A stretch of 64,000 nucleotides of DNA, from assembly GCF_963576675.1 (NCBI RefSeq), contig NC_088916.1, positions 6,339,001-6,403,000 on the forward strand, given 5' to 3'. The translations under genes were made by a program, and so were the position numbers. The first letter of the stretch is position 1; each line of letters begins with the position of its first letter. The stretch is from Euphorbia lathyris. Taxonomy: Eukaryota; Streptophyta; Magnoliopsida; Malpighiales; Euphorbiaceae. The notes under the pieces were generated by a model. That model had not been told where the DNA came from and searched no databases. It saw only the letters and a program-made list of their open reading frames with translations. Below are positions 14,174-63,932 of the stretch, piece by piece.

Positions 14174-14842
14174 TTATACGGCAGTAGCAGTGGTAGTAGC
14201 AGCAGCAGCATCAGTATCACCACCACCGCCACCGCCACTACTCCCCGTCCCATCTCCACCGCCACCACCACCCGAAATCGAAACCTTAGCCACCGAAACA
14301 GCACTAGGCCTTTTCCGTTTCTTTTTCTCGTACGGAATCCCCCGAGCTTTAGCCTGCCCTTCTCTAACTTCCCTCAAATAAATCCTCACAGCCCTAGCAC
14401 CAAACGGATTCGATTCCGGCCGTCCACCGTTCTCCTCATACGCCGCTCTCAACCGTCCAATCAAGGCGTCCAGACTCCCCCAAGCCTGCTTAAGCGGACA
14501 AGCACACGGCGCAGGTGGATTCGGGTGCCCGAAATACGGACAACCCGAAATATGAACTTTCGTCTTCCCAAATTGATCCAAATACTTCAAAAACTCAATC
14601 ACATGTGCACCACTGCATCGCGATAGCGTTAATGGCGGTTTATGATTCTTTAAGTACTGTAAAAAAGTATTCCAATCTCTTCTCTTCTGTGACTCGTATC
14701 GACTCGGCGGCGCTGTTGAAGACGACGATCCTGATCCTGATCCTGATCCTGATAATCCGACTGGTGTTGCTGTTGATGGACTCCGTTCACCACTGTTCGG
14801 GTCGGGTCCTGAACCTCCTCCTCCTCCGGATGTTGATTCCAT
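14174..14842 (-). CDS. LSH: ALOG-domain (LSH) nuclear protein
   Basis: A single-exon gene of 222 codons encoding a complete plant ALOG (LIGHT-DEPENDENT SHORT HYPOCOTYLS / G1) protein. Residues 1-46 are a low-complexity Gly/Ser/Pro leader. Residues about 47-172 form the ALOG domain, with [11 protein letters not shown] near 54-64 and the all-helical core interrupted by a zinc-ribbon-like insert with H97, C101, H106, C113 and C115. KKKRKR (173-178) is a basic nuclear-localisation signal. The C-terminus is Gly- and Thr/Ala-rich. ALOG proteins are plant-specific DNA-binding regulators, derived from a recombinase-like fold, that act in the nucleus at organ boundaries and in meristem maturation. I cannot decide from this sequence which LSH paralogue it is. 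The start is the first ATG ahead of the domain, and no introns are needed, as is usual in the family. A plus-strand frame over the same bases is a shadow of its biased codons. Confidence 0.93.
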
Positions 14843-27928: not shown

Positions 27929-28942
27929 ATGGCTGAAAACAGCACTCGGTTTCTCCCAGGAAACCAGACAACTCAGATCTTACCTGAGGGGTTGTCCATT
28001 ACTCGGCCTCCCCTATTCTTCGGGTCTAACTACACCTTCTGGAAGAATAGGATGAAAAACTTTATTCAGGCAACAAATATGAGTGCATGGCTTTCAATAG
28101 TCCAAGGCCCATTTGTTCCTATTGAAGTTGTGGCTGGCCAAACAGTTGTCAAAGCTGAGGCCAAATGGACAGAGGATGATCTCAAGAAGCTACAAAATCA
28201 CGCTTCGGCTATAAACATGCTTCACTGTGCGCTTGATGCTGCAGAATATAACAAGATATTAGGTTGTGAGTCAGCACAAGAGATCTGGAAGAAGCTGGAA
28301 GTCACCTACGAAGGAACCAACAAAGTAAAGGAGTCCAAGGTGAACCAGCAGATGAGACTATACGAGCTGTTTGAAATGAACGATGATGAGGGAATCTCTG
28401 ACATGAATGCAAGGTTTACAAACATCATCAACGAGCTCAAGAGACTTGGGAAGATCTTCACTGAGGAAGAACAAGTCAAGAAGATTCTTAGGAGTCTTCC
28501 TAAAAACTGGCAAGCAAAGAAGACTGCTGTTGAGGAAGCTCAAGACTTAACCACCTACAAATATGATGAACTCATCGGCTCACTACTGACCCATGAGATC
28601 TCAATGAAGAATTTCGAGGTGAAGGAAAAGTCTGAAGACAAGAAGCAAAAATCTATTGTCATGAAAGCTGACTCCACTGATGGGAGCTCAACAGATGATG
28701 AGGAGATGGCTATGTTCACCAGGAAGATGAAAAGGCTGTTCAGAAAGAATGACAAATATTCTAAGAAGCCTTACAGAAAGTTTGATAAGTATAAAGATGA
28801 GTCCAGCGACAGCAAATACAAGAAGGACAACTCAAAGCCCATTACATGCTTTGAATGTCATCAAACTGGCCATATCAAGTCAAGCTGCCCCACGCTGAGG
28901 AAAGAAAGGAAGAACGGAAAAAAGACAATGGTGGCAACATGA
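27929..28942 (+). CDS. Copia Gag-like protein
   Basis: 337 codons from an ATG 50 bases after the primer site. The first half has the arrangement of the plant copia Gag (UBN2-type) domain, with WLSIVQGP, an EIWKKLE segment and LPKNW. A Lys/Ser/Asp-rich linker follows, then a CCHC zinc knuckle CFECHQTGHIKSSC near residues 308-321. Gag packages the element RNA into virus-like particles. The TGA at 28940-28942 is probably a nonsense mutation and not the original end, because the same frame stays open to 29389 and continues towards the further zinc knuckles and the protease. Confidence 0.85.
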   Translation: MAENSTRFLPGNQTTQILPEGLSITRPPLFFGSNYTFWKNRMKNFIQATNMSAWLSIVQGPFVPIEVVAGQTVVKAEAKWTEDDLKKLQNHASAINMLHCALDAAEYNKILGCESAQEIWKKLEVTYEGTNKVKESKVNQQMRLYELFEMNDDEGISDMNARFTNIINELKRLGKIFTEEEQVKKILRSLPKNWQAKKTAVEEAQDLTTYKYDELIGSLLTHEISMKNFEVKEKSEDKKQKSIVMKADSTDGSSTDDEEMAMFTRKMKRLFRKNDKYSKKPYRKFDKYKDESSDSKYKKDNSKPITCFECHQTGHIKSSCPTLRKERKNGKKTMVAT

Positions 28943-30059
28943 AGCGACAGTGATGAGTCTTCATCATTAGAAGCTGATGCCACTGAGTCAGTAAAGATCT
29001 GTTTTATGGCTGACGAACTTGCTGAGCCGTGCGTCTCTGAGCATGCTGACCCCTCCATTGCATCTGACAATGAGGAGCAATCAAATGAGGTAATATCACT
29101 ACCTCAGCTCAGAAATGAAATGGTTAATGCCCTGAGTGACCTCTACACACTTGTCAAAAAGTGTAATAAGAAAGTTAGAGCACTCAGCAGGCATTGTGAC
29201 GAGGTTGAAGAGGTCAAGCTGAGTGATCTCAGATTCCTTCTTCAGGACAACTCAACTTTGCATGATAACATGGAGATCATACATAAGTCTATCTCTGAAG
29301 TCCAATCAGATTCTAAGAAACTGAGAAAGGACGTCACAACTATCCAGAACCAACTAAAGGTTCCAAATAAAAAAAAAATATTCCTCTGAATACTCAGTAC
29401 CGAGGTACTGGTCAGCAGAGATGGAATCCTCAGCGGAATGTCCAGTGTGACTTATGTGGGAAGAAAGGACACACCACAAAGGTGTGCTGGCACGCTCATC
29501 ACTGGGGTGCTGACCAGTCAGTGAGAAATCTTAAACGGAAGGTCAGCTGTGACTTCTGTGGAAAGAATGGCCATACTGTCCAAGTATGCCGCCATAAAAT
29601 AAAATATGATGCTTTACCTGTTGAACCTAACAAGCAAGGACCCAAAAAGAATTGGGTACCTAAAAGTAACTAGTTACATTGCAGGTAAGCCTGAGATGTG
29701 CTGAGAAGTCAAAGGTGTGGTATATTGACAGCGCATGCTCGAGGCATATGACTGGTGATGAAACTCAGTTCATCACATTCGAGCGTAAACGAGGAGGAAG
29801 CGTAAGTTTTGGAGACAACAAAAAAGGTAAGATAGTAGGGTCAGGAATCATTAGAGGTAATCCTACTATTGAGTCAGTCTCCCTAGTCAGCGGACTCAAA
29901 TATAACTTACTCAGCGTAGCTCAGCTATGTGACAATGGAAGAAAAGTTATATTTGATGACACTGGATGTAAAATATTCGAGGGTAAAACTAATGAGTTAA
30001 TTTTAACTGCCCCTCGCATTGATAATGTCTTCATGCTGAACTTAGAGAAAAAGTTTTAA
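28943..30059 (+). pseudogene. Gag C-terminal region and aspartic protease, broken
   Basis: 28943-29389 continues the Gag frame with an acidic, coiled-coil-like segment. A frameshift in the A run at about 29369-29378 moves the reading into the frame holding two more zinc knuckles (CDLCGKKGHTTKVC and CDFCGKNGHTVQVC, 29450-29595). A second shift near 29660-29700 leads into the protease, with the WYIDSACSRHMTGD motif around 29720-29762 carrying the catalytic Asp. An in-frame TAA closes it at 30057-30059. All breaks are short indels or single stops. Confidence 0.75.
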
Positions 30060-31607
30060 AAAACTGTATGCTTAGTTTCAAAGGAAGAAAATTCCTGGCT
30101 ATGGCACAGGAGACTTGGTCATGTAAGCATGGACCTCCTGGCCAAATTAGCAAGAAAGCAATTGGTTGAGGGATTGCCAGAACTTAAATTTGAAAAGGAT
30201 CAACTATGCCACGCTTGTCAAGCTGGAAAACAAACCAAACAATCTTTTCATAGCAAAAATATTGTCTCAACTAAGCGTCCGTTAGAGTTACTACACTTGG
30301 ATCTCTTCGATCCAGTCCAGCCACTGAGTCTGGGTGGAAGAAGATTTTCCTTGGTCATTATAGATGACTTTTCTCGGTACACTTGGATCATCTTGCTGAG
30401 TAGCAAGGATGAGACCTTTGAGACATTTTCAAATTTGGTTAGAAAACTTGAAAATGATAAAGACCTAAAATTGGCTCACATCCGAAGTGATAATGGTGGA
30501 GAATTCAAAAACCAACAGTTTGTTGAATTCTGTGAAGCCAGCGGCATTGACCATAATTTTTCTGCTCCTAGGACGCCTCAACAAAATGGGGTTGTTGAAA
30601 GGAAGAACAGAACCTTGGTTGAAATAGCCAGGACAATGCTGAGTGAGCATAGGCTTCCAAAGTACTTTTGGGAAGAAGTTGTTAACACAACGTGCTATAT
30701 TCTTAATAGGGCTCTTGTTAGACCTATACTAAAGAAAAACCCCTACGAACTTTGGAAAGGACGAAAGCCCAACATCGGATACTTTCGTGCCTTTGGCTGT
30801 AAATGTTTTATTTTAAACACCAAAGATATCCTAGCTAAGTTTGACTCAAAAGCTGATGAAGCTATCTTTTTAGGCTACTCAACAAACAGCAAAGCATATA
30901 GAGTTTTCAATAAACGAACTCAAGTTTTAGAAGAGTCAGTACATGTTGAGTTCGACGAAACTAACCCTGCAGGAAGATATCTGCCGCTGACCGAGGATGA
31001 TCCACACTCAGTACCCGCTGATCAAGATATAGCCGTTGAGTCGTTCCCTCAAGGGCTGACCCAAGGTAAAAGTAAACCTCAAATTGTTTTCAGTGACCAG
31101 TCTACACCTGCAGAAATTGTTGAAACACAGACAGCACAAGACATCAATCTACCAAAGGAGATAAGGATACCAAGAGGACACTCAGAGAGTGCTATTCTTG
31201 ATGCCGCTGAGAATACCCTGATGACAAGAAACCAACTCAGGAGATACCTCAGCAACGTAGTCTTCGTCTCAGTTCAGGAACCAAAGAACTTCGCTGATGC
31301 TGAGGATGATGAATTCTGGATGAGCGCAATGCAAGAGGAACTTGATCAATTCAGAAGAAAAGATGTATGGGAGTTAGTGCCACATCCAAGAAGTCAGAAG
31401 ACCATTGGAATAAGATGGGTCTTCCGCAACAAGCTGGATGAACAAGGAAATGTAGTCAGGAACAAAGCAAGGCTTGTAGCTCAGGGCTACAGTCAGCAAG
31501 AAGGTATTGACTACGGTGAGACCTTTGCCCCAGTGGCAAGGCTAGAGGCTATTAGAATTTTATGCGCTTATGCAAGTTATATGAACTTTAAACTGTTTGG
31601 ATGTTAA
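30060..31607 (+). pseudogene. Copia integrase and N-terminal reverse transcriptase
   Basis: The frame carries the pre-integrase WLWHRRLGH segment, the HHCC zinc site (CHAC near 30210), and the DDE integrase core with LDLFDP, SDNGGEF and NGVVERKNR supplying D, D and E. It then has the copia-type GKS/FGC connection and the beginning of reverse transcriptase ([35 protein letters not shown]). It is open from 30129 for 492 codons and ends at 31605-31607 by a one-base frameshift just before the DVKSAFLNG motif, which is read in the next frame. Confidence 0.85.
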
Positions 31608-32802
31608 GAGTGCATTCCTTAATGGAGTTATAAACGAGGAAGTTTATGTTAATCAACCTCCAGGGTTTGAGGATCCTAAATTCCCAAACCACGTTTATAA
31701 ACTAAAAAAGGCTCTGTACGGCCTCAAGCAAACACCACGTGCTTGGTATGAGGGGCTGACCAGTTTCCTGCTGACTAGAAACTATGTCAGAGGCAAAGCT
31801 GATACAACCTTATTCATTAAGAGAAAGGGTAAAGATACCCTGCTGGCTCAAATATATGTTGATGATATTATTTTCGGTGCTACTAATGAGTCAATGTGTA
31901 AGGAATTTAGTAAGCAAATGCAGACTGAGTTTGAAATGTCAATGATGGGAGAACTCAACTTCTTCCTTGGACTTCAAATCAAACAAGGGAAAAATGGCAT
32001 CTTCATCAGTCAAGCTAAATATGCCAAGGAGATATTGAAGAAATATGATCTTGAAAATTGCAAGCCAATATCCACTCCTATGGATACTGGCACTATCCTC
32101 TGTGCTGACGAGAATGGTAAGTCGGTAGACAGCAAATTGTATCGAGGTATGATAGGCTCTCTACTTTACTTAACAGCAAGTAGACCAGACATTCAGTTCT
32201 CAGTATGCTACTGTGCTAGATATCAATCTAACCCTAAGGAATCTCATTACATAGCTGTAAAAATAATCCTTAGATATTTGCAAAGCTTAGTGAACGCAGG
32301 TTTATGGTATCCCAACACTCATGGTTTTACACTCGTTGGATACACTGACGCTGACTATGGACGAGACAAGCTTGAACGAAAAAGCACCTCTGGAGGATGT
32401 CACTTCTTAGGAAGCTGTCTTGTATCCTGGTTCAGCAAGAAGCAGGCGTTAGTAGCCTTGTCTACCACTGAAGCTGAGTACATTGCTGCTGGACACTGTG
32501 TTGCTCAAGTCCTATGGATTAAGCAACAGCTTGAAGACTATGGTGTTCAAACAAAGACAATTGAGGTCAAATGTGACAACAAAAGTGCAATTGATCTATC
32601 AAAGAACCCAATTCAGCACAGCAGGATGAAGCATGTCAGCATCAGACATCACTTCATTAGAGACCATGTACTCAAGGGTGAGATAAAGCTGACCTATGTC
32701 CCAATGGATGAGCAGCTTGCGGATATCTTCACAAAGCCACTGGCTCTTGAGCAATTCAGCATACTGAGAGAAGCCATTGGTATGTTTAATCCTCTTCAGT
32801 AA
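31597..32802 (+). pseudogene. Copia reverse transcriptase C-half and RNase H
   Basis: 401 codons in the frame following the shift at about 31600. Contains the finger/palm motifs [20 protein letters not shown] and the catalytic YVDDIIFG. RNase H follows, with GYTDADYGRD, STTEAEYIA, KCDNKSAI and the terminal HIRH-like RHHFIRDHV and LADIFTKPL. The active-site aspartates are present. The stop at 32800-32802 is the natural end of pol. Confidence 0.85.
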
Positions 32803-45298: not shown

Positions 45299-48200
45299 AT
45301 GTCCATTGACCACGACTCTTCACAACCTCCCGCCGCCACCAGAGACTGGTTTTTCCCTTCTCCTTCTTTCATCCACCACCCGCCGCCGCCGGCATCTTCT
45401 AAATCTCGTCGTAGATTCTCCACTGCCTCCACAGTCTCTCAAGACTTACCTGAATCCCGACCTTCTTCCTCCACTTCCTCTCATTACAGAGATAAGAATG
45501 CTAGACTTCGACGCCGCGTCGAGTTCCCTCGCCGTGCTCAGAGATCGTCTAAACAAGAACAAGATGATACTCTTTCAGCAAGGAAATTGGATGCCCTGGG
45601 AGACAGGACAACCTCCGGTGAGACGTTCGTCGGGTTTCCTGGAGTCCGGTGGCATATAGCCGTGTCTGCAGCTGTGAGTCCTTCACCTCTTTATCTCTTC
45701 AGCTATCCGCGGATACCGGTAAAAGAATATGGCGCTATTTTTTAGTTTATTTCGTGAAGTGAAAGTTGTTTGGTTGTTACAGATTGTGATTACAGCTCTT
45801 GCTTCTTTAGTGCACAAGAATTTCTCGTTACACAATCAAGTCATTGATTTACAGGTCAAGAAAATTCAACTCAAGTTCATAATCTATAATGGTTGACTTT
45901 TCACTTAATTGACTGGAACTTATTTTCTGATTACAGGACCACATCTCGAAACTAGATGTTAGGTTACAAGCCTGCAATTTGTTATCTGATGTAGATTATT
46001 TGGATTCCACTTCACTGGAAACTGTTGATCATCCAAGTGAAGGCTTAAAACATTTAGCTCTTGTTTTCTCTCTTATCCTGTTATGCATCCCTGTTTTTGT
46101 TTTGAAGTACATTGATTTTGTATCTAAATCAAGATTACCGGATAATACATCAGAAGAAGTTTTGCTGAACAAGCAGATTGCATATCGGGCGGATGCCTTT
46201 TTATCAATCCATCCATATGCTAAGTCACTGGCATTGCTGGTTTCCACTCTTCTACTTATTTGTCTTGGTGGTTTAGCGCTATTTGGAGTGACAGGTGACA
46301 GCTTAGCAGACTGTCTTTGGTTATCTTGGACATATGTAGCTGATTCAGGCAACCATGCTAATTCTGAAGGTATAGGTCCAAGGCTAGTTTCTGTTTCAAT
46401 TAGCTTTGGTGGGATGCTTATTTTCGCAATGATGCTTGGACTTGTATCCGATGCAATTTCTGAGAAGTTCGATTCACTGAGAAAAGGAAGAAGCGAGGTG
46501 GTTGAGCAAAACCACACCTTGGTTCTTGGATGGAGTGATAAACTGGTGAGGTTCTGATTCTGGCTTGTCCGTGTCAAACTTATTTATCTCTGAACTTCTG
46601 CTGACTTTGTTTTGTGCTTTGGCTTTAGCTCTTGCACTTTTCCTATGCATTTGACAGAGAGCTATGTTTTTCCCTCCAAATAAAACTACACCTTTTAATA
46701 AAAGTCTGTTACTATAAAAATAGGAATTATAATGTTTTAGCGCATTGAGAGGTCTCAAGTTATTTCTTCTTTTGGTCTTAAAATAGGGTTCACTGCTGAA
46801 CCAACTAGCCATTGCCAATGAGAGTTTAGGTGGAGGGATTATAGTGGTGATGGCTGAACGAGACAAAGAGGAGATGGAAATTGATATTGCTAAAATGGAG
46901 TTTGACTTCAAAGGAACTAAAGTCATATGCAGAAGTGGAAGCCCTCTTATTCTTGCTGATCTTAAAAAGGTGGGAATATTGTTCACCTTTGTTCTTGAAA
47001 AATTGTAATCTATTTACACATTCTCCTTTTGAAACCTCCAGCTGCGTAAACTGAACCTTCTTCTGCAGTTGCAGTTTGATGATAGATTTAGAAAGACTTA
47101 GTTCTTGGGTCCATTTCAGTCTCTCCATATATTTCTTGCACCTAGAACCTCTTATATATCCTTTCTTCAATGTGGTGGAAGTTCATGTGGGATTTTTTAC
47201 TTTGCTATGAATGGTGAAACCATTATTTTTTTCCGTTGCCTCTGTGGATTACTTATGCCATTAAATTTTCAGGTATCTGTCTCAAAGGCCCGTGCAATAA
47301 TTGTCCTTGCTGAAGATGGAAATGCTGACCAGGTCTAATTGAGTAATTGAATCACATGCTTATTATTTGGCATTGGATAAGTTGGTTGCTATTAACTTCT
47401 TCCTGGTTTGTTACAGAGCGATGCCCGTGCACTGAGAACGGTCTTAAGTCTAACAGGAGTTAAAGAAGGACTCAGAGGTCACATTGTAGTTGAACTTAGT
47501 GACCTTGACAATGAGGTCCTTGTAAAACTTGTTGGCAGTGATCTTGTTGAAACTGTTGTGGCTCATGATGTTATTGGCCGCTTGATGATTCAATGTGCTC
47601 GGCAGCCTGGACTTGCTCAGGTCAATTTCTGGCCAACCTAGTACTGGATTTGATTGTGTCATGCGAGTGTCATTTTGCTGTTTGATTTTGTTATAGTAAA
47701 GTTGTACAATATTTTAATCTTATTTTAAACTACTTTTCTCCTTGTTTTTGGTTGTAATTGTTTTAGACTGACTATGACAGATCTGGGAGGACATCCTTGG
47801 ATTTGAAAATTGTGAGTTTTACATCAAAAGATGGCCACAGTTGGATGGCATGCAATTTGAGGATGTATTGATCAGTTTTCCTGATGCCATACCTTGTGGG
47901 GTCAAGGTTGCATCTTGTGGTGGAAAAATTATCCTCAATCCTGATGATTCATACCTTCTGCAAGAAGGCGATGAAGTGCTTGTTATAGCTGAAGATGATG
48001 ATACATATGCTCCAGCAACATTACCTACGGTGCTCATATTCCTTCAGAAAGTCAAAATTTCAGTTAGACGCTTTCTTTCTTGTTCCATGGTCTTATGTGG
48101 TTTACACATACTTGAAGGCTTGTTATATGCCTTCCACTGTCAGAAAACTATAGCAGACTTTCATTTTTTGGGGGTATAAATAGGATTTTCACTTTGTTGT

Positions 48201-51200
48201 TTCGTTCTATGTGGTACCCAAGCTGCATAGTAGGATTACAATTTTGTGTTTTTTTTTTGGACTTGAAATCATCCATCTGTGTTAGCATTTAGTGAGGCAG
48301 TAGGTGAGCATGCCTAAGGATCACTTTTACATTTTCCTTGTCCTGAATAGAACATTTTATGGACATCATGAATTATGACAAAGATGGAGTCTTTCAATTT
48401 TGTTTATTTTTTTTATCAGTTACTAATTGATAGAATACAATAGGAGAGTGTAGTTTTGCTTTTGGTATGACGTAAATGGGGTATGAAAACAATGAAGAAT
48501 AGAAGGGGAGGAGGTATGAAAAAGAAACAGTGGGTTGCAGTCGGAAGAGTCATTTTTGGTCAAGGAACCTGCTCCAGTTTCTGCAATTTAGCATGATATA
48601 ATAAATTTCATCATTCAGGTCAATGATGCATCATTAATACACAGTGCCCGACCAGCAAGAAAGCCACAGAAGATTCTACTTTGTGGATGGAGGAGGGACA
48701 TAGATGATATGATTGTGGTACGTTCTTTCTATGAAGCCCCTAATTCTTTCTTTTCTTCACCTGAATGCTGCAGGTATGGAGAGGAAGTCTACCAAAAGAC
48801 TTCGTAGGTCCAAACTCTACAGAAAAGATACTTTTTTGTGGTTGGCGGCGGGATATGGAAGATATGATTATGGTAATGTAATAAGGATTAGAATCGTTAT
48901 CCCAACACGTCTTGGGTCCAGCAAACTGTTTTAGATGTTTCTAAATTCCTCTTTGTTTCAACTAAATTCTCTCTAGTCACAATAAGTTGCTCAACTTTAA
49001 ACTCTACTTTCTTCTGCACATTGAAGATCTGGATCATTTTCTATAGTCCATTTTTCATTTCCTTTTTCACCCTCGAGAAGATTAAACAGTGCTGTTTATT
49101 TCTCTATGTTTGTATAGGTATTGGATGCCTTCCTAGCACCTGGTTCAGAGCTCTGGATGTTCAATGATGTTCCTGAAAAAGAGAGGGAAAAGAAGCTTAT
49201 TGATGGTGGCCTGGACATAGGCAGGCTGGTAAATATATCATTGGTCGATCGAGAGGGAAATGCTGTTATACGGCGCCACCTTGAAAGCCTTCCCTTGGAA
49301 TCCTTTGATTCAGTGAGTCAAATAAGATCTAAAATTAATGCAAATAGTAATTTTTGTTTTCCTTTAAGGCATTTGGTGCTTATAGTTTTTTATATAGTGG
49401 GCAATCCTTAGTTAAATCACATTTTTGACGTACAGATCTTAATTTTGGCTGATGAGTCTGTGGAAGATTCAGCTATTCAAGCTGATTCCAGATCTCTTGC
49501 GACCTTACTATTGATCCGTGATATTCAGGTGCTCTGTTATTTCTCTTATGATTAGAATTATTTGATATTTTATATTTTACTTGTCTGTTTTTTTCTTAAA
49601 AATCTTGCATCATATTCTTAATATGGAATGTATTTTGTTAAGTGCCTTTCAGTGATTGCTTGTTTCCATCAAAGTTGTCCTTTGAACATGGCATTTATTT
49701 GTGTCAAATTGTTTACATTTATTTGTATTAAGTTGTAAAAGTTTACTTGGTCAATTCCTATGTTGCATGGAAACGGACACGGGAAACGTTATTTCTATAA
49801 CATAACCTTCATAAAATAGCCGTCAAATGAAAACGGACACGGACACAGATACGAAACGCGTAAACACTACTAAAGAAAAGTGTCTGTGTAACATAGGTCA
49901 ATTCTATTGCCACTCTGAAAGTAGAATCATGGCCAGGCGTGGATAACGACATGATGTATTAACTAACACAATAGATTTGGCAACACCTTAATTATAATAG
50001 ACTGAGGAAATTCTTATTTACTTAACTTTTTGATGGTTTGGGGCCTTAAGGCATTTGTTTGGAGACTTTAGGACATCTTTCTGGTCTGGAGACCTTGGTA
50101 TTTTAGTCGAACTTTTTTGAAAAAGAACTAACTTGTTCTAAACTTGGTCTGACACCTTGTGCTGTTGTGTGGCCTTTTTGAACTCTTCATTCATCACAAA
50201 GTTAATCCTATCCTATATCAATATAGAGGAAAATAGAAAAAAGATGTTGCAAATCCCCGTAGAACCATGAAATACAATATGCAAATTAAGAGATTAGTAT
50301 CTAACTAACTATTTATAATAGATAGTAATCCTTCTAACTTTCTTGTTCATTTGTTCTGATTCTCTTCTTACAGGCAAAGCGCTTACCATTCAGAGAGGCT
50401 ATGGTGACACAAGGACATAGAGGGAGCTTTTCACAAGGCTCATGGATTGGGGAGATGCAACAGGCTTCAGATAAATCAGTAATTATAAGTGAAATTCTGG
50501 ATCCTAGAACTAAAAATCTCTTATCCATGTCGAAAATCAGTGATTATGTTTTATCAAATGAGCTCGTTAGCATGGCGTTGGCAATGGTTGCTGAGGATCG
50601 ACAAATAAATGATGTTTTAGAGGAGCTCTTTGCAGAGGAGGTAATTATTCTTTTGAACAAATTCTGAGATTTTTGTAGTGCAACTGATTTTCCAAGGCTA
50701 AAATAAGCTTATAAATTGAGTATTGTGCACTCTGCTTCTTAGTACCTTCTTCAATTCAAAACCGTTTTATTAGAGATTCTGTTTCCGAGAACAACTTGTT
50801 GCTGCACTATCCTTTTTGTCTTTTTTTTTTTTTTTTTTTTTTTTTTTATTTGTTGCTGAAAGTACAAATAGAATTTCGAACTTGTATATGTAGGCTGTTA
50901 GAACTATAGAATTTGTACAAGTCCTGGGTCATGAGAAAAGGAGTGTGTAATATGTGCCTTTATATTAGATGGATGACAATTATTACATGTATTATTAGGG
51001 CTGTTAACAAGCCGAACCTAGGTAGGCTTGGCTCGGCTCAAGAATTTTAAGCTCATCGAGCTTAAAATTTTAGGCTCAGTTCGAGAAAAGCTCGATTTAC
51101 ATGTACTAAAAAATTTACATGTTTTAACATTTTGTTGTTTAATTCCAGCCTTCTAACGAAAGAAACACCAAATTTAACATATAATTTATGACAAATTTAA

Positions 51201-51876
51201 ATGATATAATTAAAAAATTTAAAAAATATACATAGTAATTAAAAAAAAAAAATAGTCGAGCCTATTTGCAAAATTTCAAGCCGAACCTAAGGAAACACAG
51301 GCTCAGGGTCGTTAATGCTCGGGCCGATCCTGAACTTGAACCAAGCCCTATCGAGCCGAGCTTTGATCGAGTCAAGCTCAAATAGTTTGCGAACTAGCCC
51401 TGCTTATTAACACCCCTATGTATCTTTCGACTTTATTGACACGGTGGAACTTGTTCTGCGTTATATAATTTATTGTTTAAGTAACTATGTGTTTCAGAAA
51501 TTTAATACAAGATTAAGATTTCTTCTGTACTACATTTCTTTTTTCTCTTTGTTGGGACGAAAATTTTGGATCTTTTAGATTTTGGAATTTATCTACTGAT
51601 CAACTGGTTCGTTACATTACCGAGGATAATGTTTTTTTCTTTTTTTGCATCATTTAGGGAAATGAGATGCATATAAGGCAAGCAGATCTTTACCTTCGTG
51701 AAGGCGAGGAGTTGAGCTTCTACGAGATAATTCTACGAGCTCGACAGAGACGAGAGATTGTGATTGGTTATCGGGCAGCTAATGCTGAAAGAGCTGTTAT
51801 CAATCCACCTTCCAAAAATGAGAGAAAGAAGTGGTCATTAAAAGACGTTTTTGTGGTAATTGCAGAAAAGGATTAA
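45299..51876 (+). CDS. CASTOR: CASTOR-type nuclear envelope cation channel
   Basis: Exons, all joined in phase 0 with GT-AG introns: 45299-45673, 45783-45854, 45937-46545, 46787-46969, 47273-47332, 47417-47620, 47781-48029, 48774-48872 (or 48619-48717), 49118-49312, 49436-49528, 50374-50640, 51658-51876. This gives 874 residues, close to the usual length of about 850. The N-terminus (RDWFFPSPSF, then a Ser/Arg-rich region) is CASTOR-like and not POLLUX-like. Transmembrane segments lie near AVSAAIVITALASLV, LVFSLILLCIPVFVLKYI, LALLVSTLLLICLGGLALF and SISFGGMLIFAMMLGL. The pore filter is ADSGNHA between the last two. Two RCK-type ligand-binding regions follow (HTLVLGWSDK and KILFCGWRRD strands). 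CASTOR homologues sit in the nuclear envelope and, with POLLUX/DMI1, support nuclear calcium spiking in root symbiosis. No stop or frameshift was seen, so the gene looks functional. Confidence 0.95.
48619..48717 (+). other. CASTOR: CASTOR alternative exon 8a
   Basis: 99 bp, preceded by 'tcattcag' and followed by the donor GTACGT, phase 0 at both ends. It encodes 33 residues starting VNDASLIHSARPARK and containing KILLCGWRRDIDDMIV. 15 of 33 residues equal those of exon 8b, concentrated in the second half (KIL, CGWRRD, DMI). It keeps an open frame and good splice sites. Joined to exons 7 and 9 it would give the same protein length as exon 8b. Confidence 0.75.
48774..48872 (+). other. CASTOR: CASTOR alternative exon 8b (canonical form)
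   Basis: 99 bp, preceded by a polypyrimidine-rich 'ctgaatgctgcag' acceptor and followed by GTAATG, phase 0. It encodes 33 residues starting VWRGSLPKDFVGP and containing KILFCGWRRDMEDMIM, the form I know from CASTOR proteins. Only 56 nt separate it from exon 8a. Confidence 0.85.
49758..49896. mobile_element. 139-bp hAT MITE in CASTOR intron 10
   Basis: Begins CTATGTTGCATGG, ends GTGTAACATAG, with the perfect 8-bp duplication GTCAATTC (49750-49757 and 49897-49904). Contains 'acggacacgg' repeats. Confidence 0.8.
50822..50848. repeat. Poly-T tract in CASTOR intron 11
   Basis: An uninterrupted T run of about 26 bases in the sense strand of the intron. Confidence 0.85.
50996..51418. mobile_element. 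hAT MITE in CASTOR intron 11
   Basis: Begins TAGGGCTGTTAACAAGC, and the right end is the inverse of TAGGGGTGTTAATAAGC. Flanks TGTATTAT and TGTATCTT match at 6 of 8. The subterminal 'ggctcggctc' and 'gagccgagc' blocks are mirrored. It ends about 240 bp before the last exon. Confidence 0.75.
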
Positions 51877-55381: not shown

Positions 55382-56971
55382 TCACCAATAATTTCTGCAA
55401 GAGCAAATTCCGTTTTTAAAATGGTGAAATCGGGTAGAATCTCTCGCAACAATCTCTCTACCTTCAATCTTAGAAATCAAAGCTGTAGCTAAATGACAGT
55501 CTACACACATTCTAAGATTCTTAACAATCATAAGACTAGTTCCTGGAGATGTACTAATTAACCCAAATCCAATAGCCAATTTCTCACTATGACTTAAAAC
55601 TATCTCTTCCTTCTTATCATCATCTACATTTTGCATAATCATGCTTGTGTTAACCACATATCCAATCTTCTTCATCTTTTCAATCAGCTCTTCTAAATAA
55701 CTATAAATTTCCCTGCTCCGAGGATGAGATTTATCTCCCGATTCAAACGTATGAACTTTGTTATCGATTTCAATCCACGTATTTGCCTTCTCTTTCTTTA
55801 TTCCTCGGTTTAACATCAATCTCCTAACATTCACTACACTTTCCAAGTCCCCTATTTGTCCATAGAAGTTTGACATCAACATATAAACCCCGGCTTCTTC
55901 AGGCTCTAGTTCAAGTAACATATTACTCGCGGTCTTCGCTAACTCTACATTCATGTAAGAGCAGCATGAACTCAAAAATGCAGTTAAAACCTTTGCATCT
56001 GGTTTTATTGGCATGTTTTTTATGAAACTATAAGCCTCGAAAAGGCGACCGGATCGACCAAGTAGATCAACCATACAAGTATAATGCTCCATAATTGGTG
56101 TTATAGAATACTTATAAACCATTTTATTGAAAATTTCCTTTCCTTCTTGCACTAAACCTCCATGACTACAAGCATATAAAGCACCTAAGAAGGTAATTTT
56201 ATTTGGCACAACACAATCTTTCAATCTCTCCATTGCATCAAATGCTTTAAGAGCATCTTCTCCTTGTCCGTTTTTTCCGAAACCCGAAATCAAAGAAGTC
56301 CAAGACACTACATTCTTAACACTCATTTGATTAAAACATAGCAATGCATAGTTCATACACCCACATTTAGCATACATATCAATCATCGAATTCCCAACAG
56401 GTAAATCAAAATTAAACCCATATTTCATCACTAATCCATGAATTTTTCTACCGTAATTCAATGCAGCAAGATCAGCACATATAGAAAGAACACTTACAGA
56501 GGTTATAGCATCAATTTTAGCTCCTTCTAACCTCATTCTCTCAAAGAAAAACAGTCCAATTTTTCCCTCTGAATTTTGCCCTAGCCCTGAAATCAATGAA
56601 TTCCAAGTACTCTCATCACGTTCATCCATGTTATTGAACAATTCGATTGCCTTTGAAGTAGAATGACACCGGCAAAGCCCAGAAATCATGCTGTTTGTTG
56701 CGACTATATCTCGTTCAGGCATTTCGACAAACACGTTGTGAGCGTCTTCGATATAATTGCATTTTGAGTACATATCGAGAAGGGAAGTCATGATGTTCAA
56801 GTTTCTGGTGAATCCGTATTTTAGTATCAAAGAATGAGCTTGTTTTCCTTCTTTTACAGCAGAAAATCTGCCGCAGGCTCTTAGGATTTGGGGGAGAAAG
56901 AAGAGGTTCCCAAAGTTGAGCCGTGATTTTTGGAGCTCATACAGTAGAGTAATACTAACTTGTGAAGTCAT
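55382..56971 (-). CDS. DYW-class pentatricopeptide-repeat protein (RNA editing)
   Basis: An uninterrupted, intron-free frame of 529 codons. Two in-frame TAA codons lie immediately upstream of the ATG, which fixes the start. PPR motifs of the PLS type fill residues about 25-330 (e.g. TSLLDMYSKCNYIEDAHNVF, NSMIDMYAKCG, VSWTSLISGFGKNGQGEDAL). An E/E+ region follows, about 330-430. The C-terminal DYW domain has the cytidine-deaminase signatures HSEKLA (HxE) and CVDCH (CxxC), then HHFKNGICSC, and ends in NYW. DYW-PPR proteins bind organellar transcripts and edit specific C residues to U in mitochondria or plastids. The PPR array is short for the class and there is no clear transit peptide, so an upstream part may have been lost. 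The PG box before the DYW domain is poorly conserved (KEKANTW). I do not recognise the orthologue. Confidence 0.92.
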   Translation of the reverse strand: MTSQVSITLLYELQKSRLNFGNLFFLPQILRACGRFSAVKEGKQAHSLILKYGFTRNLNIMTSLLDMYSKCNYIEDAHNVFVEMPERDIVATNSMISGLCRCHSTSKAIELFNNMDERDESTWNSLISGLGQNSEGKIGLFFFERMRLEGAKIDAITSVSVLSICADLAALNYGRKIHGLVMKYGFNFDLPVGNSMIDMYAKCGCMNYALLCFNQMSVKNVVSWTSLISGFGKNGQGEDALKAFDAMERLKDCVVPNKITFLGALYACSHGGLVQEGKEIFNKMVYKYSITPIMEHYTCMVDLLGRSGRLFEAYSFIKNMPIKPDAKVLTAFLSSCCSYMNVELAKTASNMLLELEPEEAGVYMLMSNFYGQIGDLESVVNVRRLMLNRGIKKEKANTWIEIDNKVHTFESGDKSHPRSREIYSYLEELIEKMKKIGYVVNTSMIMQNVDDDKKEEIVLSHSEKLAIGFGLISTSPGTSLMIVKNLRMCVDCHLATALISKIEGREIVARDSTRFHHFKNGICSCRNYW

Positions 56972-62716: not shown

Positions 62717-63932
62717 TTGACTACCCCCTCTGAGCCCTCATTTAGTTGGTCTTCTTCCGAGAACTCGAGTTCGTCCGAGAGTACCCCTAGTTGTGATTTG
62801 TCGGAGTTACGTAATATGGTGAGGGAGCGTAGAAATCATCACCCCCGTTTGATTGAAATCCAGAACCCTTCCGTCGCTGTAACTCATATTGCTCCGGCGA
62901 TAGACCCTAGGAGTTTTTCCGGAATGGAGGCTTCCCCTTCAACTCCGATTAGGAAAAAGAAGCCTCGTGCAGAGATTACTTCGTCTCGCATGTGTGCCAC
63001 GGATCTTGCTGATTTGGCGGATTGCTATCTGTGGATCAAAAATTACGAGACCGAGTTGGCAGCTGCCCATCAGCAACCCGCCTGTCCCCCTATGGGATAC
63101 CTGTCCGTATATAGTAGTCATGTGGAGAGAGGATTCCGCCTTCCTCTTCCCCGGATGATGGGGGATATTTTGGAGTTCTTTGGGATCACTGTCTGCCAGC
63201 TGCATCCAAATGGCTGGTTGGACATAGCTCTAGATTCTTACTTAGCTTCGAATCTGGGGGTAGTATGTAATCCTCGTGTCTTCCGATCTCTTCACAAACC
63301 TTCGAAGCGTCAAACCGAATCTTTCTTCACCTTTGTCAAATTCAATGGTTATTCAACTTTTTGCGATAAGATGTCAAACGTCCATCTCTGGGACGAAAAA
63401 AATTTCTATGTTAAAGTGAAAAAGGGCGAATCTCTCGGATTCCCGTTAAATTGGAATGCTAAACCTCAACACATGGCCGGGGACTTGCGTATACTGACTG
63501 ACAATGATAAGAAAGTGGCGGATCTCATGAAGAGCATCAAGACGGATGCTTGGACGTACACCGATGCTCTGGAATTCATGATGAATGACATTCCTCTAGT
63601 CCGCCGTGTGGGGGATGTGATTACTTACGTGAAGTTTACCCAACTTGATGAAGGTAACTTTGTTTCTTCCTTGAACCTTGATTATTTTGTTGTTCCCTTG
63701 TCAGGGGTTTGTCTGAGGCTAGTCGCGCCCTTGTAGAGAAGCGTAAAAAACAGAAGGAGTTGGAAGCCCAGAAAGATGCGCAGGTGGTGGATCCTAGTAA
63801 GAGGGACGAGAAATGCCCTTTGGAGGGTTCCACGGATCCCCCTAATAAGAAGAGGAGATCAGCCTCTGCTAGTGGAGAGAAATTACTGGCGGATGCCTTG
63901 AAAGCTGGGAAGCCTGGGATGGATCAGGAGCA
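62660..63932 (+). CDS. Transposon-derived protein (plant 'gypsy-type transposon' domain), partial
   Basis: An open frame from about 62675 to a stop at 63734-63736. After a Ser-rich N-terminus it shows a region resembling the 'putative gypsy type transposon' domain of plant elements (GFRLPLPRMMGDILEFFGI, QLHPNGW). A Lys-rich region in another frame (63709-63932, EKRKKQKELEAQKDAQ, then PPNKKRR) continues the protein. An intron 63654-63704 (GTAACT to TCAG) is likely, but splicing it exactly does not join the frames cleanly, so a small indel or alternative acceptor (63718) must be involved. The donor 'gtttgt' at 63933 indicates another intron. No ATG heads the frame: the codon where one would be expected is ATA (62668-62670). 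Real exon limits are uncertain, and the gene runs off the window. Confidence 0.55.

What the first reader, a model, noticed from the sequence alone, without database searches (positions are those of the whole stretch)
48619..48872. Mutually exclusive exon pair in CASTOR
Seen: two consecutive 99-bp exons, both phase 0, both open, both with good GT-AG sites, encode two versions of the same 33-residue segment (15/33 identical, with CGWRRD and DMI conserved). The intron between them is 56 nt, shorter than plant introns normally tolerate (about 60-70 nt), so the exons can hardly be spliced to each other. This is the textbook steric mechanism of mutual exclusion. The segment is the first strand and helix of the second RCK-like ligand-binding lobe, so swapping it could change calcium or ligand gating of a symbiosis channel. 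The strong divergence of the halves implies an old duplication kept by selection. I vaguely associate predicted CASTOR isoforms with this, so it may be partly annotated elsewhere, but I cannot check.
Basis: partly seen in the sequence, partly recalled or inferred. Interest (0 to 1): 0.88.

Follow-up and report, generated by a model that had tools for sequence, protein, structure and literature searches.

The report
Ancient exon switch in CASTOR channel
A plant gene for a relative of a known root-symbiosis calcium channel carries two alternative copies of one exon, found in records of 77 seed-plant genera, and the intron between them is so short that a transcript is likely to use only one copy, which would swap the strap that joins the two halves of the channel's calcium sensor.

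Summary
A CASTOR gene (most likely Euphorbia lathyris) has two adjacent, open, phase-0, 99-nt exons: 8a (48619-48717) and 8b (48774-48872). They are 15/33 identical and separated by a 56-nt intron. Exon 8b is the form crystallised from Lotus. Exon 8a is not a relic. Of 262 proteins collected, 40 join 8a directly to exon 9 and 100 models hold both exons; 77 genera carry 8a, two of them gymnosperms. Across angiosperms 8a is as conserved as 8b (78.8% versus 78.2%), and its clade is supported 100/99. No POLLUX-like row carries 8a. The duplication therefore predates living seed plants. The new mechanistic clue: the intron's best branch site (CTAAT) sits 26 nt after the 8a donor, and six read-through models from other plants are all compatible with CTAAY at 25-26 nt (0 of 5000 shuffles). 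This matches the near-donor branch-point mechanism known from vertebrate OGDH. The swap replaces mainly the RCK1-RCK2 linker (3/16 identical) and re-encodes the strand bearing R590, whose pairing with D442 locks the Ca2+ sensor. Not shown: junction reads, strict exclusivity (86 models join 8a to 8b), any gating effect. The isoforms exist as automatic annotations; my searches found no paper on the pair.

The parts
45299..51876 (+). CASTOR coding region, 12 coding exons per mRNA, exon 8 in two alternative copies
   Evidence: Spliced by hand on GT-AG sites; 874-residue protein with either copy; Lotus CASTOR structures are the best PDB match of the RCK region, E 1.8e-106 and 1.9e-106 for the 8b form; groups with Ricinus inside angiosperm CASTOR
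47781..48029 (+). exon 7, shared; its end encodes the EDDD stretch that holds Ca(II)/Ca(III) ligands E552, D553, D554 in Lotus numbering
   Evidence: ligands from PMC6697748 section 8
48030..48618 (+). intron 7 up to 8a (589 nt); acceptor with pyrimidine fraction 0.52 and no YTRAY motif 14-45 nt upstream (true of 8 of the gene's 12 acceptors)
48619..48717 (+). alternative exon 8a, 33 codons, phase 0, VNDASLIHSARPARKPQKILLCGWRRDIDDMIV
   Evidence: conserved in 77 genera
48718..48773 (+). 56-nt intron between 8a and 8b; read through it brings a stop about 11 codons into 8b
48740..48744 (+). CTAAT, predicted branch site; branch A at 48743, 26 nt after the 8a donor, 30 nt before the intron end; no AG between it and the acceptor
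   Evidence: position compatible in 6 of 6 read-through models of other plants
48744..48761 (+). pyrimidine-rich tract TTCTTTCTTTTCTTCACC of the 8b acceptor
   Evidence: pyrimidine fraction 0.78, joint highest of 12 acceptors in the gene
48774..48872 (+). alternative exon 8b, 33 codons, phase 0, VWRGSLPKDFVGPNSTEKILFCGWRRDMEDMIM; the form of the Lotus crystal structure
49118..49312 (+). exon 9, shared, joined in phase 0 to either copy

Best explanation
This is an ancient pair of alternative copies of CASTOR exon 8 (8a and 8b), of which a transcript is predicted to include only one, because the likely branch point of the 56-nt intron between them lies only 26 nt after the 8a donor, probably too close for 8a to be spliced to 8b. 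Exon 8b has the more pyrimidine-rich acceptor and a good branch motif and is likely the default; choosing 8a would need its weaker acceptor to be recognised, after which the 8a donor joins exon 9. Read-through of the short intron gives a stop codon in this species, so failed splicing would not make whole channel protein. At the protein level the swap replaces most of the RCK1-RCK2 linker, the 'rope' that ties the peripheral subdomains to the second RCK lobe, together with the first strand of that lobe. The CGWRRD motif is kept; its R590 pairs with D442, and the D442A mutant of Lotus CASTOR is leaky without Ca2+ and fails in nodulation. I infer that the two isoforms build the same gating ring but set this lock, and so the Ca2+ dependence of opening, differently, alone or mixed in one tetramer. 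Shown by sequence and database: the two exons, their age, their equal conservation, 8a in no POLLUX-like row, and 8a-to-exon-9 junctions in predicted isoforms. Inferred: branch-point use, exclusivity, regulation and function.
For: Exons, phases and the 56-nt intron. Of 262 proteins gathered by three searches, 40 have 8a followed directly by exon 9 (printed with two mis-sorted rows), 25 of those 40 named as isoforms; 100 hold 8a and 8b, 1 holds 8a twice plus 8b, 121 hold one b-type copy. By their flanks 139 of the 141 8a-bearing rows are CASTOR-like, 2 (the gymnosperms) unclear, 0 POLLUX-like; of the 121 others 116 are POLLUX-like and 5 unclear. Conservation over 58 angiosperm rows (57 genera plus the window): 8a 78.8%, 8b 78.2%, end of exon 7 74.6%, start of exon 9 66.6%, while 8a versus 8b in the same gene is 40.6%. 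The 8a segments of 9 angiosperms and 2 gymnosperms form one clade (100/99), and gymnosperm POLLUX groups with angiosperm POLLUX (97/92) apart from the gymnosperm two-exon gene. Six models read through the a-b intron; all six are compatible with CTAAY with the branch A at 25 or 26 nt (shuffles average 0.20 of 6; 0 of 5000 reach 6), including the poppy with a 66-nt intron. The window intron read in frame matches Eragrostis 10/12, Phragmites 8/12 and Papaver 7/12 (0 of 5000 shuffles each). In OGDH, branch points lie 25-41 nt from the donor, under a proposed threshold of about 50 nt (PMC7969005, passages). Lotus structure: linker 553-580, RCK2 from 581, R589/R590 at the Ca(I) interface, D442A leaky (PMC6697748 sections 7-9, and passages); numbering agrees, since E552-D554 and R589/R590 fall where the alignment puts them.
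Against: No RNA read was seen; the isoform records are predictions whose support I could not inspect. 86 of 97 two-segment models join 8a straight to 8b. Most are unnamed automatic models, but six of the eleven that bear isoform names also do so (Solanum stenotomum X4, Nicotiana attenuata X5, N. sylvestris X7, Salvia divinorum X1, Populus hybrid X4, Cucumis melo X2; names), so double inclusion may happen in some plants. No CASTOR-like row with 8b alone is in my set (the queries favoured 8a and POLLUX), so 8b alone rests on the Lotus protein. 56 bp is given as the minimal length of experimentally validated introns (PMC6310983, passage), so splicing is disfavoured rather than forbidden. Read-through models are a biased sample: only short, in-frame, stop-free introns can appear there. 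The 24-27 nt range of the branch-site test was set after seeing the peptides, and two of the six are grasses. Cucurbita and Populus match the window intron in 4/12 and Andrographis in 3/12, which shuffles reach often. The 8a acceptor is weak but not exceptional (exon 7's is as pyrimidine-poor, exon 2's poorer), and the two donors score alike, 6/9. The linker half of 8a is somewhat less conserved than that of 8b (61.4% versus 66.1%). The AlphaFold model of an 8a isoform was too poor to use (pLDDT 48.5).
Confidence: 0.77

Rival explanations
1. Both exons are normally included together, so that the protein carries the linker and strand twice (907 residues), as most automatic gene models with both exons draw it.
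For: 86 of 97 two-segment models join 8a to 8b without gap, six of them bearing isoform names; both exons are in phase and open.
Against: 40 records have 8a to exon 9 with no 8b; the Lotus protein that was crystallised has 8b alone; the 56-nt intron with a branch site 26 nt from the donor is ill suited to splicing; of the eleven isoform-named models with both exons, four keep the intron in frame and one uses an acceptor inside 8b.
Confidence: 0.09
2. Alternative exons are used, but exclusivity comes from regulators or RNA structure rather than from the short intron; the short length is incidental.
For: No branch point was mapped; other genes with such exons use competing RNA structures (PMC6071210, start of abstract in the listing); T-rich tracts lie on both sides of the putative branch site.
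Against: The branch-site offset of 25-26 nt is compatible in all six read-through models, including one whose intron is 66 nt.
Confidence: 0.12
3. Exon 8a is a fading relic of a tandem duplication that open reading frame and splice sites happen to preserve.
For: Weaker 8a acceptor than that of 8b.
Against: 8a is as conserved as 8b over 58 angiosperm rows (78.8% versus 78.2%; bootstrap of the difference -0.023 to 0.037), and its residues 17-33 more so (95.1% versus 89.6%); present in two gymnosperm records.
Confidence: 0.02

Closest known systems
OGDH exons 4a/4b of vertebrates (mutually exclusive exons enforced by branch points near the donor; PMC7969005, abstract start, passages)
   Same: Two alternative exons in a Ca2+-regulated protein, short intervening intron, branch points 25-41 nt from the first donor, long-lasting limit on the intron's size.
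   Different: There branch points were mapped and the isoforms' Ca2+ sensitivity is known; here both are inferred. The host is a plant and the protein a channel.
BK channel STREX insert (PMC4122160, passages)
   Same: Alternative splicing that alters the linker between RCK1 and RCK2 of a Ca2+-gated channel and changes its Ca2+, voltage and kinase response.
   Different: STREX is an optional insert in a disordered linker; CASTOR swaps one linker for another of equal length.
Alpha-tropomyosin exons 2/3 (recalled, not looked up)
   Same: Textbook steric exclusion by a branch point too close to the preceding donor.
   Different: Animal muscle gene; mechanism tested by experiment.
Plant mutually exclusive exons: Picea MADS-box genes (PMC6243048, passages), legume enoyl-CoA hydratase exons 3/4 (PMC2277414, passage), Arabidopsis FLM (recalled)
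   Same: Use of one of two exons in plants.
   Different: No near-donor branch-point mechanism appeared in the passages that I saw; the legume exons are 65 and 53 nt, so not copies of equal length like these.
POLLUX/DMI1/SYM8
   Same: Sister channel with the same exon 8 segment.
   Different: No POLLUX-like row of 262 carries 8a; two 8a-bearing records named POLLUX (P0008, P0010) are CASTOR-like by their flanks. The window genome's three POLLUX-like loci show one copy each.

Membership tests
CASTOR (CASTOR/POLLUX/DMI1 channels) | Sequence match to the tandem-RCK region of Lotus CASTOR | tested here: met
   6o7c_A and 6o6j_A, E 1.8e-106 and 1.9e-106
CASTOR (CASTOR/POLLUX/DMI1 channels) | Falls in the CASTOR rather than the POLLUX clade | tested here: met
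   With Ricinus (99/96) inside the angiosperm CASTOR clade (100/100), exon 8 left out
Mutually exclusive exons | Adjacent homologous exons of equal length and phase | tested here: met
   99 and 99 nt, phase 0, 15/33 identical
Mutually exclusive exons | Each copy occurs alone between exons 7 and 9 | tested here: inconclusive
   8a alone in 40 predicted records of other species; 8b alone in the Lotus protein; no reads, and none from this species
Mutually exclusive exons | Copies are never or rarely joined | tested here: inconclusive
   86 of 97 two-segment models join them; models are not reads
Steric (near-donor branch point) exclusion | 5' splice site to branch point under about 50 nt | tested here: inconclusive
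   Predicted branch A at 26 nt, the only YTRAY in the intron (a weaker TTCAC has its A at 42); compatible at 25-26 nt in 6 of 6 models; prediction, not mapping
Steric (near-donor branch point) exclusion | Branch point mapped by lariat sequencing and exclusivity lost when the distance grows | not testable with these tools
   Needs RNA and minigenes

The most novel reading that the evidence does not exclude
Seed plants make two gating-ring versions of the CASTOR Ca2+ channel by a splice switch more than 300 million years old, enforced by a branch point frozen 25-26 nt from the 8a donor. The gating work that I found concerns the 8b form, perhaps because legumes, where the channel was characterised, have lost 8a. 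The ratio of the two forms, or mixed tetramers, would set the D442-R590 lock and so the threshold or rhythm of nuclear Ca2+ spiking in mycorrhiza and root growth.
Probability: 0.35. Interest if true: 0.9.

Novelty: new member of a known kind. Interest (0 to 1): 0.78.

Why it matters
CASTOR is required for the nuclear Ca2+ spiking of root symbioses, and the gating study that I read describes one form of it from one legume. A second form, as conserved as the first from conifers to grasses and changing the strap between the two Ca2+-sensing domains, would mean that an ancient switch in this channel has been missed. It is directly testable by junction reads and patch clamp. It would also be a plant case of exclusion by a near-donor branch point; the passages I saw described that mechanism for animal genes.

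Tried and rejected
AlphaFold of the Ricinus 8a isoform with 31 rows gave pLDDT 48.5 and under 50 over the switch, so no fold search was run on it. Shared origin with, or gene conversion from, the POLLUX exon was rejected: 8a is its own clade, and 8b sits with POLLUX and Closterium (33 columns only, most inner forks weak). A hidden second exon in the window genome's POLLUX copies: only one GWRRD motif was found in each 3-kb locus L002-L004. dN/dS was not computed, for want of coding DNA from other species. Literature: could have found the pair and did not (listings; passages read in the papers cited); two searches asked other questions.

Class corrections: the script sorted P0049 and P0074 as 8a-only and P0141 as b; reading them showed both exons (in P0141 the first is cut short), and they were moved by hand. 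Rows with gaps of -14, -13 or -2 and the three-segment row P0001 were left out of the conservation count, which kept one row per genus (59 genera plus the window, from 92 rows). The class rule uses residue 17, so its Q/E contrast is partly circular; the unsorted table gives it without that rule. Genus names were copied from record names; 'Ginkgo' for P0053 rests on the gene-id prefix Gb_ alone (recalled).

Full report
What is there. The window's + strand holds a CASTOR gene (coding region 45299-51876) of 12 coding exons per mRNA in which exon 8 occurs twice. Exon 8a (48619-48717) and exon 8b (48774-48872) are each 99 nt, phase 0 and open, with GT-AG borders; they share 15 of 33 residues and 54 of 99 bases. 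The intron between them is 56 nt, the shortest of the 12 introns listed. With either exon the protein is 874 residues long. The genome is held as G000. The length of its contig C4 (98,129,200) equals that given for a record named Euphorbia lathyris DMI1-like (P0185), so the species is most likely Euphorbia lathyris (Euphorbiaceae). The gene groups with Ricinus.

Which copy is the known one. Exon 8b is the form in the Lotus CASTOR crystal structures (6o6j, 6o7a, 6o7c). The 8a form scores lower against the same chains (328 versus 357 bits).

Exon 8a in other plants. Three protein searches returned 262 different proteins: 120, 37 new, 105 new; each search lists only its best 120 of 949, 714 and 957 hits. 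By their exon 8 segment, 40 have 8a alone followed directly by exon 9, 100 have 8a then 8b, one (Xanthoceras, P0001) has 8a twice and 8b, and 121 have one b-type copy. Twenty-five of the 40 are named as isoforms in their records (names). By the sequence on either side of exon 8, 139 of the 141 8a-bearing rows are CASTOR-like, two (the gymnosperms) unclear and none POLLUX-like; of the 121 others 116 are POLLUX-like and five unclear. So no CASTOR-like row with 8b alone is in the set; the queries did not aim at that form. Exon 8a is present in 77 genera: rosids, asterids, poppies and other early eudicots, grasses and an orchid, Tasmannia, Persea and Asimina, Cryptomeria, and a record that I take as Ginkgo from its id prefix. 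The proteins are clustered at 90% identity, so the rows say nothing about how often each isoform is used.

Age and constraint. Over 58 angiosperm rows with both exons (57 genera plus the window), mean pairwise identity is 78.8% for 8a, 78.2% for 8b, 74.6% for the last 33 residues of exon 7 and 66.6% for the first 33 of exon 9. By halves, 8a is 61.4% and 95.1%, 8b 66.1% and 89.6%. Within a gene, 8a and 8b are 40.6% identical, about the same as between genes (40.5%), so they have not been homogenised. In the 97 two-segment rows, residue 17 of the first copy is Q in 95 and L in 2, and of the second copy E in 97. In a tree of 32 segments, 8a including both gymnosperms is one clade (100/99); b-type copies, POLLUX and the alga Closterium form the rest. 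Without exon 8, gymnosperm POLLUX joins angiosperm POLLUX (97/92), and the gymnosperm two-exon gene lies outside both that clade and the angiosperm CASTOR clade, unresolved. The duplication is thus older than living seed plants, on the strength of two gymnosperm records, and on the CASTOR side as far as seen. The window genome's three POLLUX-like loci show one copy each.

How exclusion would work. In the 56-nt intron AG occurs at positions 18 and 55 only. The only YTRAY branch motif is CTAAT with its A at 26, 30 nt before the end, followed by a pyrimidine tract; a weaker TTCAC has its A at 42. The 8b acceptor has the joint highest pyrimidine fraction of the gene's 12 acceptors (0.78); the 8a acceptor has 0.52, like that of exon 7, and no YTRAY motif 14-45 nt upstream, which is true of 8 of the 12. 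The donors score alike (6/9 each). Six models from other plants read straight through this intron: five have 18 residues (54 nt: Cucurbita, Populus, Phragmites, Eragrostis, Andrographis) and one has 22 (66 nt: Papaver). Back-translation shows that all six can hold CTAAY with its A at 25 or 26; shuffled peptides average 0.20 of 6, and none of 5000 sets reaches 6. The longer poppy intron keeps the same offset, which points to the donor-to-branch distance rather than total length as the constrained quantity. The window intron, read in frame, matches Eragrostis in 10 of 12 positions, Phragmites in 8 and Papaver in 7, each reached by 0 of 5000 shuffles; Cucurbita, Populus and Andrographis match in 4, 4 and 3, which shuffles reach often (390, 574 and 1704 of 5000). 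Caveats: read-through models can only show short in-frame introns, the tested range was chosen after the fact, and two of the six are grasses. Four further models join 8a to an acceptor 39-42 nt inside 8b (gaps -13 and -14), which also avoids the short intron, though gene-finder settings could cause this. Against exclusivity, 86 of 97 two-segment models join 8a straight to 8b, six of them with isoform names.

This is the arrangement described for vertebrate OGDH exons 4a/4b, where branch points 25-41 nt from the donor lie under a proposed threshold of about 50 nt (PMC7969005; start of abstract, passages). Plant introns under 70 nt are more often retained, which the authors link to steric hindrance (PMC2277414, passages); [quoted passage not shown] So 8a-8b splicing is disfavoured rather than impossible. 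In the window species, read-through reaches a stop about 11 codons into 8b (translation).

What the swap changes. In Lotus numbering the segment is 565-597. The linker between the RCK domains is 553-580 and RCK2 starts at 581; [quoted passage not shown] H463 stacks between R589 and R590, and D442, a Ca(I) ligand, pairs with R590 (section 8). The D442A mutant has higher basal activity at low Ca2+, is leaky without Ca2+, and fails to restore nodules, while D444A, at the same site but outside the lock, behaves like the wild type (passages). Both exons keep CGWRRD. The linker half is 3/16 identical between 8a and 8b and the RCK2 half 12/17. The ligands named in the text that I read (D442, D444, E493, F489, N491, E552, A342, S345, D553, D554) lie in shared exons; the text does not name all eight ligands of Ca(I). 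I infer that the sites stay and the lock or its coupling changes. The nearest functional parallel is the STREX insert in the RCK1-RCK2 linker of BK channels, which shifts Ca2+ and voltage sensitivity and kinase response (PMC4122160, passages). An AlphaFold model of the Ricinus 8a protein was too poor to use.

Novelty. Predicted isoforms with 8a exist in public records, so the exon is not unknown to annotation pipelines. Eight literature searches that could have found it gave no paper on this pair in their listings. The structure paper's main text has no occurrence of 'splice' or 'isoform' (term search), and a survey of conserved plant splicing none of 'castor' or 'mutually exclusive' (PMC4374538, term search). 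The library is open-access only. I file it as a new member of a known kind (mutually exclusive exons, probably of the near-donor branch-point type), in a new kind of host protein.

Verdict. Real, ancient and under selection: shown. Alternative use: strongly suggested by database isoforms. Steric exclusion: supported by a compatible branch-site offset but not mapped. Gating effect: inferred.

Noticed in passing
G000:C4:38349109-38408841 (L002, L003, L004): Three POLLUX/DMI1-like exon 8 copies within about 57 kb of another contig; L003 matches the annotated DMI1-like protein P0185, the other two are diverged. A local expansion of POLLUX in this genome.
   Followed up: partly
P0001 (Xanthoceras sorbifolium record): Two identical 8a segments followed by 8b: a possible further exon duplication or an assembly artefact.
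   Followed up: no
P0121-P0126, P0135 (Triticum, Aegilops, Alopecurus): In these grasses the 8a core reads CGMRRD instead of CGWRRD; in Solanaceae (P0062-P0068, P0071, P0077, P0133, P0139) it reads TGWRRD. Lineage-specific changes next to the R589/R590 pair.
   Followed up: no
No legume is among the 77 genera with exon 8a, although legume rows are plentiful (legume query); 8a may have been lost in the family where CASTOR was characterised. The lists are capped, so this is a lead only.
   Followed up: no
P0043, P0076, P0106, P0135: Models that join 8a to an acceptor 39-42 nt inside 8b, giving a hybrid segment.
   Followed up: no
window 14174-14842, - strand: ORF with an ALOG domain (PF04852), a LIGHT-SENSITIVE-SHORT-HYPOCOTYL-like gene (name recalled).
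   Followed up: no
window 27929-32802, + strand: Copia-type LTR retroelement: gag, integrase and reverse transcriptase matches in three ORFs.
   Followed up: no
window 55382-56971, - strand: PPR protein of the DYW class in one open frame.
   Followed up: no
window 62717-63736, + strand: ORF with a gypsy-type transposon domain (PF04195, 39 bits).
   Followed up: no
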